This document shows, piece after piece, positions 57,886-64,000 of a stretch of 64,000 nt of DNA. The notes under the pieces were generated by a model. The model was not told where the DNA came from, did no database searches, and saw only the letters and a list, made by a program, of their open reading frames with translations. The stretch is from Pleomorphomonas carboxyditropha (lineage in GTDB: Bacteria > Pseudomonadota > Alphaproteobacteria > Rhizobiales > Pleomorphomonadaceae). The position numbers and the translations under genes were made by a program. Location of the stretch: NCBI RefSeq assembly GCF_002770725.1, contig NZ_NQVN01000006.1:62001-126000 (forward strand), given 5' to 3'. Each line of letters opens with the position of its first letter. The stretch's first letter is position 1.

Positions 57886-58273
57886 AGATGCGAACTGGCA
57901 CGGATGTCAAGATTGTAATTGGTTTAGGTGAACCGTTTGACGGCGGTCCGAATCGACTTGCCCGGCCAAGCGCAGAAGACGCGTTTCGCGGTGCGAGGGA
58001 AAGAGGGTCCGGCGGAACTGCGTGAGGCCGATCCCCGGGCCGACCCGTTCCGCCGGGCGGCGGCCGCCGAAACTTCAGGCTGCGACTTTGGTCGCGACCC
58101 TACGGGCAAAACATCGCGGCCCGCCGCCATTTAGCCGCCTTTCGCCGGTTTTCAGCCGAACTTGCAATGGGTTGAAGGCGATGTTTCTTGACCTCGGAGC
58201 GCCGCTCGCCATGCTGGGCCTTCACGGCATCTGCCGGGAGAAGATCGTCGTCCCTCGGAAATCGGAGCCCTTC

Positions 58274-59545
58274 ATGGCCAACCATCGCGTCGTCGTCGTC
58301 GGAGCCGGATTTGCCGGCTTGCAACTGGTGCTCGATCTCAAGGGTGCGCCGGTCGACATCACGCTGATCGACCGGCGCAATCACCACCTGTTCCAGCCCC
58401 TGCTCTACCAGGTGGCGACGACGCTGCTGGCCACCTCGGAGATCGCCTGGCCGATCCGCCGGCTGTTCCGCGACCGGCCGGAGGTGAAGACGGTGCTCGG
58501 CCACGTCGTCGGCGTCGACCGGCAGGAAAAGGTGGTGCGGCTCAGGGACGGCAGCACCATTGCCTACGACACGCTGGTGCTGGCGACCGGCGCCCGCCAC
58601 GCCTATTTCGGCCACGATCAATGGGAAGCCTTCGCGCCGGGCCTCAAGACGCTGGAGGACGCGACGACCATCCGCCGCCGCGTGCTCTTGGCCTTCGAGC
58701 GGGCCGAGCTGGAACCGGATCCGGAGAAGCGGCAGGCGCTGCTCACCTTCGCCATCATCGGCGGCGGTCCGACCGGCGTCGAGCTCGCCGGCATCATCGC
58801 CGAGCTGGCCCACCGAACGCTGGTCAGGGAGTTCCGGTCGATCGACACGCGCAGCGCCCGCATCCTGCTGATCGAGGCGGGTCCGCGCATCCTGCCGGTG
58901 TTCACGCCCGATCTTTCCGAATATGGCGGCCGGGCGCTCGACAAGCTGGGCGTCACCGTGCGCACCGGCGTGCCGGTGACCGACATTTCCGCCGACGGCG
59001 TTCGCATCGGCGAGGAATTCGTGCCGGCGAGGACGGTGCTCTGGGCGGCCGGCGTGCAGGCCTCGCGCGCCGCCGAATGGCTGGGCGCGCCGACCGACCG
59101 GGCCGGCCGGGCGATCGTCGAGCGCGACCTCGCCGTGCCCGGCGCGCCGGATATCTTCGTGATCGGCGACACGGCGTCGGTGACGACGGCCGAGGGCAAG
59201 CCGGTGCCGGGCGTGGCGCCGGCCGCCAAGCAGCAGGGCGCGCACGTGGCGAAGACCATCCGCAGCCGTCTCGCCGGCAAGCCGACGCCGGGGCCGTTCG
59301 CCTACCGCCACCAGGGCAATCTCGCCACCATCGGCCGCAGCGCCGCCGTGGTCGACTTCGGCTGGATCAAGCTGAAGGGCGCCATCGCCTGGTGGGTGTG
59401 GGGCATCGCCCACATCTATTTCCTGATCGGCACGCGCAGCCGCTTCGCCGTCGCCTGGAGCTGGCTGTGGATCTTCATGTCCGGCCAGCATTCGGCGCGC
59501 CTGATCACCCAGAAGGAGACGCTGAAGGAGGAGAACGGCCGCTGA
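58274..59545 (+). CDS. ndh: Type II NADH:quinone oxidoreductase
   Basis: A 423-residue flavoprotein that oxidises NADH at the inner face of the membrane and passes electrons to quinone without pumping protons. FAD binds at GAGFAG (residues 10-15), NADH at IIGGGPTGVELAG, and the second FAD motif is FVIGDTASV. The C-terminal 80 residues carry the hydrophobic quinone and membrane-binding region (GAIAWWVWGIAHIYFLIG). The ATG at 58274 has GGAG upstream; upstream in-frame ATGs would add non-family sequence. It converges on the ibr cassette. Confidence 0.93.
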   Translation: MANHRVVVVGAGFAGLQLVLDLKGAPVDITLIDRRNHHLFQPLLYQVATTLLATSEIAWPIRRLFRDRPEVKTVLGHVVGVDRQEKVVRLRDGSTIAYDTLVLATGARHAYFGHDQWEAFAPGLKTLEDATTIRRRVLLAFERAELEPDPEKRQALLTFAIIGGGPTGVELAGIIAELAHRTLVREFRSIDTRSARILLIEAGPRILPVFTPDLSEYGGRALDKLGVTVRTGVPVTDISADGVRIGEEFVPARTVLWAAGVQASRAAEWLGAPTDRAGRAIVERDLAVPGAPDIFVIGDTASVTTAEGKPVPGVAPAAKQQGAHVAKTIRSRLAGKPTPGPFAYRHQGNLATIGRSAAVVDFGWIKLKGAIAWWVWGIAHIYFLIGTRSRFAVAWSWLWIFMSGQHSARLITQKETLKEENGR

Positions 59546-59720
59546 CGGCCGCTATCCTTCCGCTAGTCGCCGTGCCGGTGCCGTCGGGATTGGCTTAGCT
59601 CCCCATCCCAACCATTTGGGCGGAATCGCACTTTGGAAAGGTCGTTGGGCCTTTCCGGAGTCGCGCGGGAGGCCGGCATCTTCGCCAGAGGATACGGCTG
59701 CCGCAGGAACCGCCGCCCGG

Positions 59721-60356
59721 TCAGTCCCACGATTTCGAATAGTCGTGGCCTCGGAACAGCTCGGGCAGGCCGGACACCTGCTTGAAGCGCAGCACCTCGT
59801 CGGCATCCATGCCCAGTTGCCGGGCCACCTCGGCCTCGCTCCAGCCCGCCCGCAACAGGGTGACGACGACGTCGGTCATCGGCAGCACGCCATGCACGCC
59901 ACGGGCGCGATTGTGCCGAATGGTGGCGGCGATCCGGTCCGGCGTATCGCCGCGCGCGGCGCGAATAGATACCACGGGCAAATAGCCGCGCAGCCGTTGC
60001 CGGATGCGGCCGGGCATCTTGCCGACCCGCTGCCGGTGGAAGCCGTCGACCACGACGAAACGGTCCTTGTCTGCCTGATGCGCGACGATCGGCTGGGTGA
60101 AGCCGTCGGTATCGATGGACAGCGACAGCAGCGCCATTTCCGGCGGCGCGACGGTGTTGGGATTGTAGTCATTGCCCTCGACCTGATCGCCGGGCACCCA
60201 TTGGACGCAGTCCACCGGCTCGTCGGCGAACGGGCTGTGCTCATGCAGGCATCGGCGGATCCGGTTGATGGCGTCCACCCGTCTCTCCAGCGGCAAGCCG
60301 TCCAGTTCGTCGAACAGGGCCTCGGCCCGCTTCACGAGATCCGTCGCGTCCGGCAT
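59721..60356 (-). CDS. ibrB: IbrB-like ParB-domain protein
   Basis: A 211-residue soluble protein. Residues 45-155 are a ParB/Srx-fold domain with the VDGFHRQR box at 103-110 and IRHNRARG at about 146-153; residues 165-195 form a helix-turn-helix (GWSEAEVARQLGMDADEVL). It is the last gene of the ibrA-GNAT-ibrB cassette. GAGGAA lies 7 bases before the ATG at 60356. In E. coli, IbrB with IbrA activates genes for immunoglobulin-binding proteins, but the biochemistry is unknown. The ParB fold covers CTP-switches, nucleases and kinases, so activity cannot be inferred. Confidence 0.85.
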   Translation of the reverse strand: MPDATDLVKRAEALFDELDGLPLERRVDAINRIRRCLHEHSPFADEPVDCVQWVPGDQVEGNDYNPNTVAPPEMALLSLSIDTDGFTQPIVAHQADKDRFVVVDGFHRQRVGKMPGRIRQRLRGYLPVVSIRAARGDTPDRIAATIRHNRARGVHGVLPMTDVVVTLLRAGWSEAEVARQLGMDADEVLRFKQVSGLPELFRGHDYSKSWD

Positions 60357-60786
60357 GCGCGTTCCTCACTAAAGTCACCCAGCGCCCGCGCGTGGCGCGG
60401 ACCTGGAATCCGTGCGGCGCCAGAAAGCGCACGCAAGTCTCCGGCACCCGCGTCGTGCACGCGAGGTCGAACTCGTCGACGTAGCCGAGCACGTGATCGC
60501 GCAGGGCGCGGAAGAGGCCGCGCCCGCGCACCTCGGGACGCAGGTAGCCCTCGCGGATGCGCACGATGTCGAGCTGATGCTCGATGCTGATGAAGCCCAG
60601 CACCCGCGTCTGGCCCTTGAGCCGCACGACGAACCAGCGGTAGCCCGGCCCGTCGTTGAGCGGATAGCCGCCGCATTCGCGCCGCACCTTGGCGCTGGCG
60701 AAGAAGCGGCCCATGCGGGCGAAGAAAGCGGCCTCGTCGTCGGCCGAACGCATCTCGACCAGTTCGCAGTCTTCCAGGCGGATCAC
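60241..60786 (-). CDS. Small GNAT-like acetyltransferase of the ibr cassette
   Basis: A 181-residue protein with a GNAT fold: the acetyl-CoA loop is in REGYLRPEVRGRGLFRAL near residue 85. The start is GTG, overlapping the ibrA stop by four bases (GTGA), with GAGGGGG just before it, so it is translationally coupled to ibrA. Its last 38 residues overlap the start of ibrB by 116 bases and look like an unselected Arg/Gly-rich extension; family-like sequence ends near RGRWVTLV. This suggests the original stop was lost or the tail is dispensable. Confidence 0.75.
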   Translation of the reverse strand: MIRLEDCELVEMRSADDEAAFFARMGRFFASAKVRRECGGYPLNDGPGYRWFVVRLKGQTRVLGFISIEHQLDIVRIREGYLRPEVRGRGLFRALRDHVLGYVDEFDLACTTRVPETCVRFLAPHGFQVRATRGRWVTLVRNAHAGRDGSREAGRGPVRRTGRLAAGETGGRHQPDPPMPA

Positions 60787-62009
60787 GACCCCCTCTCCTC
60801 GATCAATGCCAGGGCGTCGATATCGCGGCGGGCGAAGCCGAACGACAGCGAGCGGGCCATATCCTGCTTGAGCAACGACAGCGCCACGCGCCGCCAGGAG
60901 GGTTGCGCCTTGCGGTTCTCCAGCGCCGGCACGCCGGCGTCCGGCCAGGCATCGAGCGGATAGTCGTGCTGCCCCCACCAGTCGATGAAGCGCCGGATGC
61001 GGCGCATATAGACCGTGCGCAACGGCCCCGGCAGGCTCCGCAGCAGGAACTGGCTGTACTGCTTCCAGGTGCTGAAGGTGGGTGGCAGCCCGAGCCCGCC
61101 GCGATAGCCGAGGAAGCGCTGGCGGCAATAGCGCGCCGCGTAGTTGGCGCCGGCCACCCGCCGGACGACGCGGAACCAGGTCTCCGGCTCCAGCCGGTGA
61201 AACAGGTCGAGGCCCTTGCGCTGGTCGTCGCCATAGGGCTGGCAGATGCGCATCTGCGAGAACGGCACGCCGGCCCGGTACATATGGTCGTAGAGCCGGT
61301 TGTAGGCGTGGCCGTGCTCGCCGGTGTAGCGCCAGAGGTCGCCAAATTTCCAGTCGTAGATGGGAAAGAAGGTGACGGCCCGGCCGTCGGTCAGATCGCG
61401 GGCGCTCCACGCCACCGCCGCGCCGGCGCCGGTCGGCGTCCAGGCGCACTTCTTCACCCGGGTGCGGCGCTTGACGGCCAAATAGCGGTGAAGGGATTCG
61501 TCGGAGCGAATGCCGACCAGGAAGGCGGTCGGCACGTCCTGCGCCAGCCATTCGTTGAAGGCGGGCACGAACTCCTCGAACTCCATGCGGTAGCGGTAGA
61601 AGGGAAAGAACGCCTGGTCGCGGATCACCGATGGATGCGTCGGCATCGGCCGGATCCAGTCCGCCTCGCGCCCCGGCTCCCAGGCGCACCAATAGGGCTC
61701 CTGCAGGCTGGAGGCGTTGCGCAGGTTGAGCGGCAGGCAGATCCACCACGGCCGCACGTCCTCGCGGTCGAACATTTCGGTGACGTGCGCGATGGTCGCC
61801 GAATATTGCCCTTCCAGGTCGATGAACATCGCGTGCACCGGCCCGCGGCCCATTTCGCGCGCCACTTCCAATGCCAGGTGCAGCGTGACGGAACTGTCCT
61901 TGCCGCCGGAGAAGGCGACGCAGACACGCTCGAAATGCTCGAAGACCAGTCGGATGCGCGCCTTGGCAGCCGAGTAAACGTCGACGTCGCGATAGCACTT
62001 GCCCGCCAT
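60783..62009 (-). CDS. ibrA: IbrA-like PAPS-reductase-family protein (DUF3440)
   Basis: A 408-residue soluble protein. Residues 25-200 form an adenine-nucleotide alpha-hydrolase domain of the PAPS reductase/CysH type with the pyrophosphatase loop SGGKDSS (34-40); this is also the fold of DndC, which activates sulfur chemistry on DNA. The C-terminal half is DUF3440 (DWKFGDLWRYTGEHGHAYNRLYD and MRICQPYGDDQRKGL). No Fe-S cysteine cluster as in assimilatory reductases is evident. It is the first gene of a three-gene operon. The only named relatives, IbrA proteins, are regulators with unknown chemistry. Confidence 0.88.
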   Translation of the reverse strand: MAGKCYRDVDVYSAAKARIRLVFEHFERVCVAFSGGKDSSVTLHLALEVAREMGRGPVHAMFIDLEGQYSATIAHVTEMFDREDVRPWWICLPLNLRNASSLQEPYWCAWEPGREADWIRPMPTHPSVIRDQAFFPFYRYRMEFEEFVPAFNEWLAQDVPTAFLVGIRSDESLHRYLAVKRRTRVKKCAWTPTGAGAAVAWSARDLTDGRAVTFFPIYDWKFGDLWRYTGEHGHAYNRLYDHMYRAGVPFSQMRICQPYGDDQRKGLDLFHRLEPETWFRVVRRVAGANYAARYCRQRFLGYRGGLGLPPTFSTWKQYSQFLLRSLPGPLRTVYMRRIRRFIDWWGQHDYPLDAWPDAGVPALENRKAQPSWRRVALSLLKQDMARSLSFGFARRDIDALALIEERGS

Positions 62010-62114
62010 GGTACGGCCCGCTTGCTCCTTGGAAAGGTGCCAGCGGTGTAACGGAAGTTTGCTGGCGGTAGTCCAGACCGAGCGGATGCCCGAAATCGGG
62101 CTTCAGGCATCCCG

Positions 62115-62152
62115 CCCAATGGTCAATATACAATATATTCGACCCATTCGGG
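62115..62152. promoter_or_regulatory. AT-centred inverted repeat upstream of ibrA
   Basis: A 38-base imperfect inverted repeat about 105 bases before ibrA. The inner arms AATATA and TATATT flank CAA, and GGTC and GACC then CCAATG and CATTCGG extend it with two single-base bulges. It overlaps the likely ibrA promoter (TATATT on the minus strand), so it is placed to be an operator, perhaps for IbrB's helix-turn-helix. Confidence 0.5.
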
Positions 62153-62537
62153 ATCTGCTCGACGCTGACTCCCAATAAATTTCAATCCGTCCCAACCGTC
62201 TTCACAGCAACCCATTGCAAGATATGAATGGGTAACTGGCTGCACCTTTGTGAACAATGTCGGATGCTTTAGAATTTTTCGATTTCGACAGACACAGACT
62301 GACGGACGAGCGAAACACAGGAGAGACGGAATTATGGAGAGCAGCGATTCGCATCCCGCTCCGCCCGAGCGATCCAGGCTGAAAATATACGGAACCCGAA
62401 GCCCCTTCTTCGCTTTTCGGCATCGTCCTTCGCCGCCGGGGATCGGTTTTCGGCCTGCCGGGAACAGATCCGGCCTCTCTGCGCACCCTCGAAGCGCAAG
62501 AGTAAGCGCGGGCCGCTATTGTCCTTTCAACCAACGA
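62153..62537. other. Non-coding region between ibrA and the DAHP synthase terminator
   Basis: About 385 bases. Short open frames on both strands lack ribosome sites and recognisable sequence, so no gene is called. No RNA gene or repeat is seen. Confidence 0.35.
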
Positions 62538-62565
62538 GAAAGGCGCCCCTTGCGGAGCGCCTTTC
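62538..62565 (-). terminator. Terminator of the DAHP synthase gene
   Basis: GAAAGGCGC (62538-62546) and GCGCCTTTC (62557-62565) form a perfect 9-base-pair stem around a 10-base loop, 34 bases past the DAHP synthase stop; the minus-strand side ends in TTTCTCGTT, so the T tract is modest. Confidence 0.7.
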
Positions 62566-62599
62566 GTCTTCTGTCAGTCTCGTGCGAGAGAGTTCCGCC

Positions 62600-63982
62600 T
62601 CACTCGCCGGCGATCGCCCATTCCATCGGCTCGCGGCCCTCGCGCGTCTTCTTGATGCGCTCGGCGACCAGGAAGGCCAGCTCCAGCGCCTGATCGGCGT
62701 TGAGGCGCGGATCGCAATGGCTGTGGTAGCGATCCGACAGTTGCTCGCCGGAGATGGCGACGGCGCCGCCGGTGCATTCGGTGACGTCGCGGCCGGTCAT
62801 CTCGACGTGGATGCCGCCGGGATGAGTGCCCTCGGCGGCGTGCACGTCGAAGAAGGCGCCGACTTCCTTCAGGATGCGGTCGAACGGCCGCGTCTTGTAG
62901 GAGTTGAGCGTGATGGTGTTGCCGTGCATCGGGTCGCAGGACCAGACCACCGACCGTCCCTCGCGCTGAACCGCGCGGATGAGGGCCGGCAGGTAGTCGC
63001 CCACCTTGTCGGCGCCGTAGCGGGTGATCAGCGTCAGCCGGCCCGGCTCGTTGTCGGGATTGAGCGTGTCGATCAGGCGGATCAGCTCGTCCGGCGCCAG
63101 CGACGGGCCGCACTTCAGGCCGATCGGGTTCTTGATGCCGCGGCAGTATTCGATGTGGGCATGGCCGGGCTGGCGGGTGCGGTCGCCGATCCAGATCATG
63201 TGGCCGGAGGTGCCGTACCAGTCGCCGGTGGTCGAATCGACGCGGGTCAGCGCCTGCTCGTAGCCGAGCAGCAGCGCCTCGTGGCTGGTGTAGAAATCGG
63301 TCGTCCGCATCTCCGAGACGCTTTCGGGATGCACGCCGCAGGCGCGCATGAAGGCGAGGCTCTCGGTGATGCGATCGGCATATTCCTGATAGCGCGACGA
63401 CTGGGTACCCTTGACGAAGCCGAGCGTCCACTTGTGGACGTTGTCGAGGTTGGCGTAACCGCCGCCGGCGAAGGCGCGCAGCAGGTTCAGCGTCGCCGCC
63501 GACTGGCGATAGGCCATCTCCTGGCGCTGCGGGTCGGGGATGCGCGATTCCGGCGTGAAATCCATGCCGTTGATGATGTCGCCCCGGTAGGACGGCAGCT
63601 CGACGCCATCGATGGTCTCGGTCGACTTGGAACGCGGCTTGGCGAACTGGCCGGCGATGCGGCCGACCTTCACCACCGGCTGGGCGGCGCCGTAGGTCAG
63701 CACCACCGCCATCTGCAGGAAGACGCGGAAGAAGTCGCGGATATTGTCGGCACCGTGCTCAGCGAAGCTCTCGGCGCAATCGCCGCCCTGCAGCAGGAAG
63801 GCCTCGCCGGCCGCCACCTTGGCCAGCGACTTCTTGAGCTTGCGCGCCTCGCCGGCAAAAACCAGCGGCGGATAGCTCGAAAGATGCGCCTCGACGGCGG
63901 CGAGCGCCGCCTGGTCGGGATAGTCGGGCACCTGCTCGATGGGCAGGGCGCGCCAGGAATCGGGCTTCCAGGTGGTAGGCAT
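62600..63982 (-). CDS. 3-deoxy-7-phosphoheptulonate synthase, class II
   Basis: A 460-residue enzyme that joins phosphoenolpyruvate and erythrose-4-phosphate in the first step of the shikimate pathway. It is the plant-like class II type, with the metal-site QGGDCAES (Cys69), the [12 protein letters not shown] stretch, [13 protein letters not shown] and the CDPMHGNT metal motif. Class II is the usual DAHP synthase of rhizobia and relatives. The gene is complete; its start codon lies 18 bases from the window edge, so only part of its ribosome site (AAGAAGAG) can be seen. Confidence 0.97.
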
Positions 63983-64000
63983 GACGCGGCTCTTCTTCTC

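What the first reader, a model, noticed from the sequence alone, without database searches (positions are those of the whole stretch)
59721..62009. Three-gene ibrA-GNAT-ibrB cassette, a candidate undescribed system
A PAPS-reductase-fold protein of the DUF3440/IbrA type, a small GNAT protein and a ParB-fold protein with helix-turn-helix are coupled: ibrA and the GNAT gene share a GTGA overlap, and the GNAT and ibrB genes overlap by 116 bases. IbrA/IbrB are known in E. coli as activators of eib genes with unresolved chemistry. The DndC-like nucleotide domain with a ParB-fold partner suggests nucleotide- or sulfur-activation chemistry on a nucleic acid or protein, possibly regulation or phage defence. 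The added acetyltransferase makes it more than a two-gene regulator.
Basis: partly seen in the sequence, partly recalled or inferred. Interest (0 to 1): 0.8.

Follow-up and report, generated by a model that had tools for sequence, protein, structure and literature searches.

The report
Phage-related IbrA–acetyltransferase–IbrB gene trio
Three tightly packed bacterial genes form a small insert related to a gene pair that is widespread in bacterial viruses, and they probably make a chemical-modification enzyme whose target, perhaps DNA, has not been identified.

Summary
In detail: on the minus strand, ibrA (60783-62009), a small GNAT gene (60241-60786; GTGA overlap) and ibrB (59721-60356; 116-base overlap) form one coupled cassette. 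It is alone in a ~2.97-kb insert (59553-62520); 9 of 10 congener loci examined have the two flanks adjacent. IbrA and IbrB are an almost obligate pair (184 of 186 distinct IbrA loci), common in phages, and present in E. coli K-12 as ybdN/ybdM. The GNAT is not a bystander: one GNAT family, mostly in one slot, in 44 of 186 loci including viruses and other phyla, under purifying selection and diverging with IbrA (r 0.86). But it is optional; other loci carry a SNF2 helicase, an unannotated ~130-aa family or an ectoine-synthase-like cupin, in places fused to IbrB. IbrA keeps an invariant ATP-pyrophosphatase loop but no conserved cysteine pair, so DndC-like sulfur transfer is unsupported. A defence-island home is not established. 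Best reading: a phage-related adenylation/acylation module, most likely acting on nucleic acid (inferred). Novelty: a GNAT-bearing variant of the known but biochemically unsolved IbrA/IbrB pair.

The parts
60783..62009 (-). ibrA: PP-loop (N-type ATP-pyrophosphatase) / DUF3440 protein, 408 aa; SGGKDS at residues 34-39
   Evidence: Pfam DUF3440 88.1 bits, PAPS_reduct 60.9 bits; phrog_2302 272.6 bits; S34, G36, K37, D38, S39, D64, E66 in 155 of 155 rows; model pLDDT 86.1
60241..60786 (-). GNAT-fold acyltransferase of a family found with IbrA/IbrB, 181 aa (GTG start); the last ~37 codons overlap ibrB and are not conserved as protein
   Evidence: G26 and W51 in 45 of 45 rows, R87 and G90 in 43 of 45; dN/dS 0.18-0.32 against four relatives
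59721..60356 (-). ibrB: ParB/Srx-fold nucleotide-binding domain (box DGFHR, residues 104-108) followed by a helix-turn-helix, 211 aa
   Evidence: phrog_2159 223.8 bits; D104, G105, H107, R108, H148, N149, H155 in 167 of 167 rows; model pLDDT 87.1, Foldseek to Noc/KorB/ParB
60783..60786 (-). GTGA stop-start overlap of ibrA and the GNAT gene
   Evidence: sequence read directly
60241..60356 (-). 116-base overlap of the GNAT 3' end and the ibrB 5' end
   Evidence: shorter in relatives L009, L015, L017
59553..62520 (.). whole insert absent from congeners, between the 3' ends of the convergent ndh (58022-59545, +) and DAHP synthase (62600-63982, -) genes (names by my reading of the translations)
   Evidence: blastn of window 58000-64000 against 10 congener loci: both flanks adjacent in 9, the tenth matched only ndh; no tRNA gene in the window; minor ORFs of the insert were not searched by family

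Best explanation
The cassette is a stand-alone, horizontally acquired relative of a gene module that is common in phages. Shown: IbrA is a PP-loop protein with an intact ATP-pyrophosphatase motif, IbrB a ParB-fold protein with a helix-turn-helix, and the GNAT an optional but recurrent third partner of the same pair. Inferred: IbrA activates a substrate as an adenylate (ATP to AMP plus PPi), IbrB binds nucleotide and nucleic acid and supplies target access or phosphotransfer, and the GNAT caps the product with an acyl group, so that the three make one modified group on a nucleic acid, most likely DNA. In phages this would mark or protect phage DNA or alter its expression; in the window's bacterium it would be a domesticated copy. 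The substrate, the acyl donor and the target are not shown.
For: PP-loop residues S34, G36, K37, D38, S39 invariant in 155 of 155 IbrA rows, whereas the Vibrio PAPS reductase aligned lacks that loop. Best solved relatives by profile are the adenylyltransferases CysD (2.6e-7) and FAD synthase (1.8e-6); Foldseek lists APS reductase, FAD synthase, CysD, TilS/MesJ and LarE. The IbrB model matches Noc, KorB and ParB-CDP best and SbnI and sulfiredoxin more weakly; D104, G105, H107, R108 and H148, N149, A151, G153, H155 invariant in 167 of 167. IbrB lies within 2.5 kb on the same strand in 184 of 186 distinct IbrA loci. GNAT in 44 of 186, between ibrA and ibrB in 49 of the 53 GNAT loci tabulated before removal of duplicates, Mantel r 0.86 to IbrA distances (p 0.001). 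In 398 Pseudomonadota genomes, the window's own included, the two strong GNAT-profile hits (own genome and G182) both lie beside ibrA. Annotated phage neighbours include YqaJ and RecT, ERF, helicase and terminase or portal. An EctC-like cupin takes the GNAT's slot in L077 and is fused to IbrB in L075.
Against: No assay or direct evidence of any modified base was found. The only experimental report known to me for IbrA/IbrB is gene activation in E. coli (Sandt et al. 2002, seen only as a reference-list entry; content recalled). The GNAT is missing from 142 of 186 distinct loci and from 6 of the 8 IbrA-positive genomes of the Pseudomonadota survey at E 1e-8, so acylation cannot be essential to the core. 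K-12 carries the pair, yet no unexplained K-12 DNA base is known to me (recalled), although ybdNM is repressed there by CitR (PMC9068703). Some phage neighbourhoods are not replication or packaging, for example antirepressor genes in E. coli phage PhiR5_2. The locus sample leans towards relatives of the window's IbrA.
Confidence: 0.42

Rival explanations
1. Regulatory system: IbrA/IbrB act as transcription co-activators or clamp-like regulators (as reported for the E. coli eib genes), IbrB being a truncated CTP-dependent ParB/KorB/Noc-like clamp, and the GNAT tunes it by acetylating a protein.
For: IbrB's best structural matches are Noc, KorB and ParB; its HTH part holds residues invariant in alignment A7 (G182, M183, E187, R190); IbrAB activation of eib genes is in print (Sandt 2002, title seen, details recalled).
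Against: At the place of the ParB GERR box IbrB has DGxHR in 167 of 167 rows. A regulator does not by itself explain the invariant ATP-pyrophosphatase loop of IbrA or the GNAT and EctC-like partners. blastn of about 400 bases upstream of ibrA printed no match between the window and 17 relatives.
Confidence: 0.25
2. Sulfur or small-molecule chemistry: IbrA handles a sulfonucleotide or amino-acid adenylate, and the set makes a small molecule or activated sulfur species rather than modifying nucleic acid.
For: APS reductase is the top Foldseek match (2.8e-6). C256 is kept in 144 of 155 rows. In K-12, deletion of citR derepresses ybdNM and raises cysDNC, cysHIJ and cysAWU by 2.0-3.2 log2 (PMC9068703 Table 1). 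EctC-like and GNAT partners both act on amines in known pathways (recalled).
Against: The section read does not test whether ybdNM causes the cys response, and the same mutant shows a large flagellar response. No cysteine pair is conserved. A ParB-type HTH and phage replication or packaging neighbourhoods fit a nucleic-acid target better.
Confidence: 0.15
3. Anti-phage defence cassette.
For: Small patchily distributed insert of two enzymes plus a ParB-fold protein: IbrA in 8 of 398 Pseudomonadota genomes, the window's own included. Among 95 flanking ORFs of 18 loci PADLOC reports 87 families at 1e-10, of which 25 are shown, among them reverse-transcriptase, AbiEi, mads_3, SngC, DpdJ and BrxH models.
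Against: The pair is common in phages (215 of 50,697 phage records; 400 of the 600 viral-contig stretches examined). PADLOC finds only weak DndC and BrxP for IbrA and nothing for the GNAT and IbrB at E 0.1. Of the 25 families shown, 24 have one matching ORF each and one has two; the Pfam families shown (25 of 77) are mostly signalling, transport and metabolism, with two phage integrases and one relaxase. Which loci carry the PADLOC hits was not worked out and no control was run.
Confidence: 0.1
4. The GNAT is a bystander gene that happens to sit between ibrA and ibrB.
For: Two members of the window's own clade (L004, L014) have only a short ibrA-ibrB gap without it, and 142 of 186 distinct loci lack it.
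Against: One family only, mostly one slot, with 19 changes on the IbrA tree, at least 13 forced by well-supported branches; purifying selection; co-divergence with IbrA; strong profile hits only beside ibrA in the 398-genome sample.
Confidence: 0.07

Closest known systems
IbrA/IbrB of E. coli ECOR-9 (recalled) and phages; ybdN/ybdM of E. coli K-12
   Same: Same two families, adjacent and overlapping: window IbrA vs YbdN 36% identity over 394 columns, IbrB vs YbdM 52% over 193.
   Different: K-12, E. coli phage PhiR5_2 and the five loci of one Pseudomonadota family, f50 (L054-L058), show no GNAT of this family; K-12 has citR upstream.
PAPS/APS reductases, CysD, FAD synthase (Pfam PAPS_reduct)
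   Same: Fold of the PP-loop half and the late PIYDW region.
   Different: IbrA keeps the SGGKDS loop, adds DUF3440 and shows no conserved C-terminal catalytic-cysteine motif (the ECGxH motif of reductases is recalled).
Dnd phosphorothioation (DndC/DndB)
   Same: A PP-loop protein with a ParB-superfamily partner (DndB as ParB superfamily: PMC12839542 passage).
   Different: DndC only 16.7 bits against a cut-off of 290.4; no conserved cysteine pair; the insert holds no further large ORF for DndA, DndD or DndE.
Dpd 7-deazaguanine system (DpdB ParB-like ATPase with DpdA)
   Same: ParB-like ATPase serving a base-modifying enzyme (PMC12839542 passage); one Fusobacterium phage has ibrA-ibrB near a ParB-like/TGT pair.
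   Different: No TGT/DpdA in the window cassette; IbrA is a PP-loop enzyme.
Phage Mu Mom (GNAT-fold DNA modifier)
   Same: Only the broad idea of a GNAT-fold enzyme on DNA (recalled).
   Different: Profile comparison gives probability 0.2 on hhalign's percent scale, E 0.29: no detectable relation.
Ectoine synthase EctC and its GNAT partner EctA (pairing recalled)
   Same: An EctC-like cupin (122.5 bits to Pfam Ectoine_synth) takes the third slot in phage XCL1123 and is fused to IbrB in phage Nebkiss.
   Different: The window GNAT has no NCBIfam match at E 0.01, so it is not shown to be EctA.

Membership tests
IbrA/IbrB pair (DUF3440 + ParB-like) | DUF3440 and PAPS_reduct domains in IbrA | tested here: met
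   88.1 and 60.9 bits, above the cut-offs of 25 and 22.5
IbrA/IbrB pair (DUF3440 + ParB-like) | adjacent IbrB homologue with the DGFHR and RHNRARG motifs | tested here: met
   52% identity to YbdM
IbrA/IbrB pair (DUF3440 + ParB-like) | activation of prophage gene expression | not testable with these tools
   needs a bench test; the 2002 paper is not held
PAPS/APS reductase | C-terminal catalytic cysteine (ECGxH, motif recalled) and degenerate P-loop | tested here: not met
   S34, G36, K37, D38, S39 intact in 155 of 155 rows; the only cysteine above 90% is C256, 144 of 155
DndC phosphorothioation | DndC model above cut-off and cysteines for sulfur transfer (cysteine dyad: PMC12839542 passage) | tested here: not met
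   16.7 bits against 290.4; PADLOC DndC E 1.1e-4; no conserved cysteine pair
ParB/Noc partition clamp | ParB_N above cut-off, GERR box, C-terminal dimerisation domain (last two recalled) | tested here: not met
   19.7 bits against 26.3; box is DGxHR in 167 of 167 rows; the protein ends soon after the HTH. The fold of the N-domain and HTH is met
GNAT acyltransferase superfamily | GNAT fold with CoA loop RxxGxG/A (recalled) | tested here: met
   12 of 15 members match Acetyltransf_1 at E 0.01; R87 and G90 in 43 of 45 rows; the window protein alone is below cut-off
Mu Mom | sequence relation to Mom | tested here: not met
   hhalign probability 0.2 (percent), E 0.29
EctA diaminobutyrate acetyltransferase | EctA model match | tested here: not met
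   no NCBIfam match at E 0.01 for the window GNAT; only weak RimI for L024's
known anti-phage defence system | match to a PADLOC system model | tested here: not met
   only weak DndC and BrxP for IbrA, none for the GNAT and IbrB at E 0.1

The most novel reading that the evidence does not exclude
IbrA/IbrB is the core of an unrecognised, very widespread phage DNA-hypermodification machine with interchangeable finishing enzymes: IbrA adenylates a nucleobase (TilS-like chemistry) and attaches an amine-bearing group, IbrB loads the complex on DNA, and the third slot (GNAT acylation, or EctC-like cyclisation/dehydration) sets the final group. The window holds a chromosomal copy of the acylating version.
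Probability: 0.12. Interest if true: 0.9.

Novelty: new variant of a known kind. Interest (0 to 1): 0.6.

Why it matters
IbrA/IbrB genes occur in many phages, in the Heimdallarchaeal virus HeimV2 (PMC8813620 passages) and in E. coli K-12 itself, yet I found no account of their chemistry in the searches listed below. The recurring GNAT, and the EctC-like cupin in the same slot, are a concrete hint that the pair starts a multi-step chemical modification rather than simply switching genes on. Because K-12 carries ybdN/ybdM, the question can be tested in a standard laboratory strain.

Tried and rejected
Mom-like GNAT: rejected. EctA-like GNAT: no support. DndC-like sulfur transfer: weak matches and no conserved cysteine pair. 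Defence island: PADLOC and Pfam scans of 95 flanking ORFs from 18 loci (95 taken from the 131 listed) gave 87 and 77 families, 25 of each shown. The DpdJ and BrxH hits may come from an Lhr-type helicase in L006 (a DEAD_assoc hit and my reading of a 1489-aa ORF), and the reverse-transcriptase hits from L020 (my reading of an ORF with a YxDD motif); neither was checked ORF by ORF. No control set was scanned, so enrichment is untested. Shared upstream regulatory DNA: blastn between the window and 17 relatives printed no match. The ~130-aa neighbour family (called X here) matched nothing in Pfam, NCBIfam or PHROGs with one member and nothing in PHROGs with 22 members.

The 186 are distinct IbrA sequences among 209 loci with a full-length IbrA; loci with a short or cut IbrA were dropped before that count. 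In one search the GNAT class takes in loci that also have X, and the X class takes in the two EctC loci. One of the two IbrA loci counted without IbrB (L140) does show a ParB ORF next to IbrA, and the other (L071) has short flanks. In one search the window's own sequence was added to sets that already held its genome copy for IbrA and GNAT (L001), so it is counted twice there. The genome surveys include their own centres (G000, G418), which were known to carry IbrA.
Full report
Observation. The ibrA stop and the GNAT start share GTGA, and the GNAT and ibrB overlap by 116 bases. IbrA has DUF3440 and PAPS_reduct domains above cut-off. IbrB is close to phage family phrog_2159, but ParB_N is below cut-off. 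The GNAT alone is below Pfam's cut-off, while 12 of 15 aligned family members match Acetyltransf_1 at E 0.01. GNAT dN/dS against four relatives is 0.18-0.32, so it is a real, selected gene. The 116-base overlap is shorter in relatives whose GNAT stops earlier.

Surroundings. The genome has one copy, and none of the 19 other members of its family that were searched has IbrA. Of 13 congeners, 11 gave a match to ndh; I took 10 of these loci. In 9 of the 10 the ndh and DAHP-synthase genes that flank the cassette are neighbours with 5-461 bases between the aligned flanks; the tenth stretch matched only ndh. The cassette is thus an insert of about 2.97 kb (59553-62520), gained since the split from these congeners or lost in all of them. 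Its large ORFs are these three genes, and there is no tRNA gene in the window. Insert GC is 65.4% against 66.8% for the window.

Relatives. The genome scan gave 27 loci, sixteen of them (L002-L017) 75-90% identical to the window's IbrA in beta-, gamma- and alphaproteobacteria, which points to horizontal movement. In 22 of the 27 a GNAT of the same family accompanies ibrA; L004, L014, L022, L023 and L027 show none. In a spread of 398 Pseudomonadota genomes 8 have IbrA, the window's own included, and in 299 genomes of the phylum of L024's genome (a Bacillota MAG) 3 do, that genome included. With the GNAT profile over a sample of the same size and handles there were 4 genomes with a hit at 1e-8: the two strong ones (own genome 1.1e-49, G182 1.0e-21) lie beside ibrA, and two weak partial ones (1.5e-9, 4.7e-9) lie in genomes without IbrA; the other 6 IbrA-positive genomes gave none. 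Only the best 9 candidates per genome were scored there. Of eight genomes chosen because they hold ibr loci, 6 had one match to the window GNAT, at the ibr locus, and 2 had none.

A module common in phages. Of 50,697 phage records, 215 hold an IbrA match, 119 of them over at least 80% of the query; the more distant ones may belong to neighbouring PP-loop families. Among 186 distinct full-length IbrA sequences, 184 have IbrB within 2.5 kb on the same strand. Annotated phage neighbours include YqaJ and RecT, ERF, DNA helicase and terminase or portal; 15 loci share a SNF2-type helicase directly upstream. Others lie near antirepressor genes or next to lysis genes. E. coli K-12 has the pair as ybdN/ybdM, 36% and 52% identical to the window proteins.

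The third slot. Of the 186, 44 are classed as having the GNAT, 89 an unannotated ~130-aa family with a NRIAWLGQA motif (X), 15 another small family, 14 only the helicase and 24 none of these. In the table of 215 loci before duplicates were removed, 49 of 53 GNAT loci have it between ibrA and ibrB. On a FastTree tree of 154 IbrA rows the GNAT label needs 19 changes, at least 13 forced by well-supported branches; the tree cannot tell gain from loss, and some long branches are unsure. IbrA and GNAT distances correlate at 0.86 (Mantel p 0.001, 44 loci), as expected for a lasting partnership, though shared ancestry alone also raises such a correlation. In Pseudoalteromonas phage XCL1123 the middle gene is instead an ectoine-synthase-like cupin (122.5 bits), and in Mycobacterium phage Nebkiss that cupin is fused to IbrB. 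5 of 50,697 phage records hold such a cupin in tblastn, four of them annotated beside a PAPS-reductase gene and one unannotated.

Proteins. In 155 IbrA rows (154 non-redundant plus the window's, which thus counts twice) the residues S34, G36, K37, D38, S39, D64 and E66 never vary, and the only cysteine above 90% is C256 (144 of 155). A modelled IbrA (pLDDT 86.1) matches APS reductase, FAD synthase, CysD, PAPS reductase, TilS/MesJ and LarE, with TM-scores to the query of only 0.15-0.34 in the 50 matches listed; profile search ranks CysD and FAD synthase first. I read this as an ATP-using adenylation enzyme. IbrB (pLDDT 87.1) matches Noc, KorB and ParB-CDP best and SbnI and sulfiredoxin more weakly. 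Its nucleotide box is DGxHR in 167 of 167 rows where ParB proteins have GERR (alignments). That DGxHR-like boxes occur in Srx- and SerK-type enzymes is recalled. The GNAT keeps the CoA loop (R87, G90 in 43 of 45) and N-terminal residues G26 and W51 in 45 of 45, which may be part of a common acceptor site (inference).

Mechanism. Shown: the composition, order, conservation, wide phage occurrence and optional third partner. Inferred: adenylation by IbrA, nucleotide and nucleic-acid engagement by IbrB, acyl capping by the GNAT, and a nucleic-acid target. The regulatory reading rests on the E. coli eib work, which I could not read. A sulfur reading has one circumstantial lead: the citR mutant that derepresses ybdNM also induces sulfate-assimilation genes (section 6 of PMC9068703, part 1 of 2; ybdN row), together with a large flagellar response, and cause was not tested in what I read.

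Literature. Searches for DUF3440 (2 papers), IbrA plus IbrB (12), PAPS reductase with ParB, GNAT and phage (1), phosphosulfate with ParB, acetyltransferase, hypermodification and phage (0), PAPS reductase with ParB and base modification (1), ectoine synthase with ParB and phage (4), IbrA with eib and prophage (14, ten listed), ybdN plus ybdM (1), phage with PAPS reductase, ParB-like and DNA modification (1) and a last search on auxiliary metabolic genes (1) showed no description of the three-gene module in the listings. Only open-licence PubMed Central papers are covered, and of the 12 IbrA/IbrB papers I opened 2. I saw passages of PMC12839542, PMC7020466, PMC8065619, PMC5874904 and PMC8813620, and passages plus most of one section of PMC9068703; the rest only as listings.

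Verdict. I file it as a new variant of a known kind. Its interest lies in making the unknown chemistry of IbrA/IbrB testable.

Noticed in passing
L212:4036-4431; also for example L050:4573-4983 and L086:4622-4993 (107 profile hits in the fetched loci): An unannotated ~130-aa phage protein family (motif NRIAWLGQA) sits next to ibrA in many phages (89 of 186 distinct IbrA loci are classed with it); no match in Pfam, NCBIfam or PHROGs for one member nor in PHROGs for 22 members.
   Followed up: partly
L077:7311-7703 and L075:7311-8210: An ectoine-synthase-like cupin lies between ibrA and ibrB in Pseudoalteromonas phage XCL1123 and is fused to IbrB in Mycobacterium phage Nebkiss.
   Followed up: partly
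L073:6007-13063: Fusobacterium phage phiFN37 carries ibrA-ibrB and, a few genes on, a second ParB-like gene with a queuine tRNA-ribosyltransferase and a queuosine-precursor transporter, possibly two modification sets side by side.
   Followed up: no
L251:2748-4570 (E. coli K-12 ybdM, ybdN): In a published citR deletion that derepresses ybdNM, sulfate-assimilation genes rise 2.0-3.2 log2 (PMC9068703 Table 1); the section read does not test whether ybdNM causes this.
   Followed up: no
L253:1-5236 and L252:4435-8180: Mycobacterium phage Athena has two ParB-like genes (gp1, gp5) around a PAPS-reductase-like gene beside the terminase; Flavobacterium phage FCV-1 has ParB and PAPS genes between terminase and portal.
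   Followed up: no
L046:4786-9964: On a Rhodovastum plasmid the order is small HTH gene, ibrA, GNAT, a 91-aa unknown gene, ibrB; another PAPS-reductase-family gene lies about 1.4 kb further on, on the other strand.
   Followed up: no
L026:122-1397: In Candidatus Burkholderia verschuerenii the IbrA match starts near the contig end and is in two pieces, the GNAT follows, and no IbrB was found in the locus; possibly a decayed copy.
   Followed up: no
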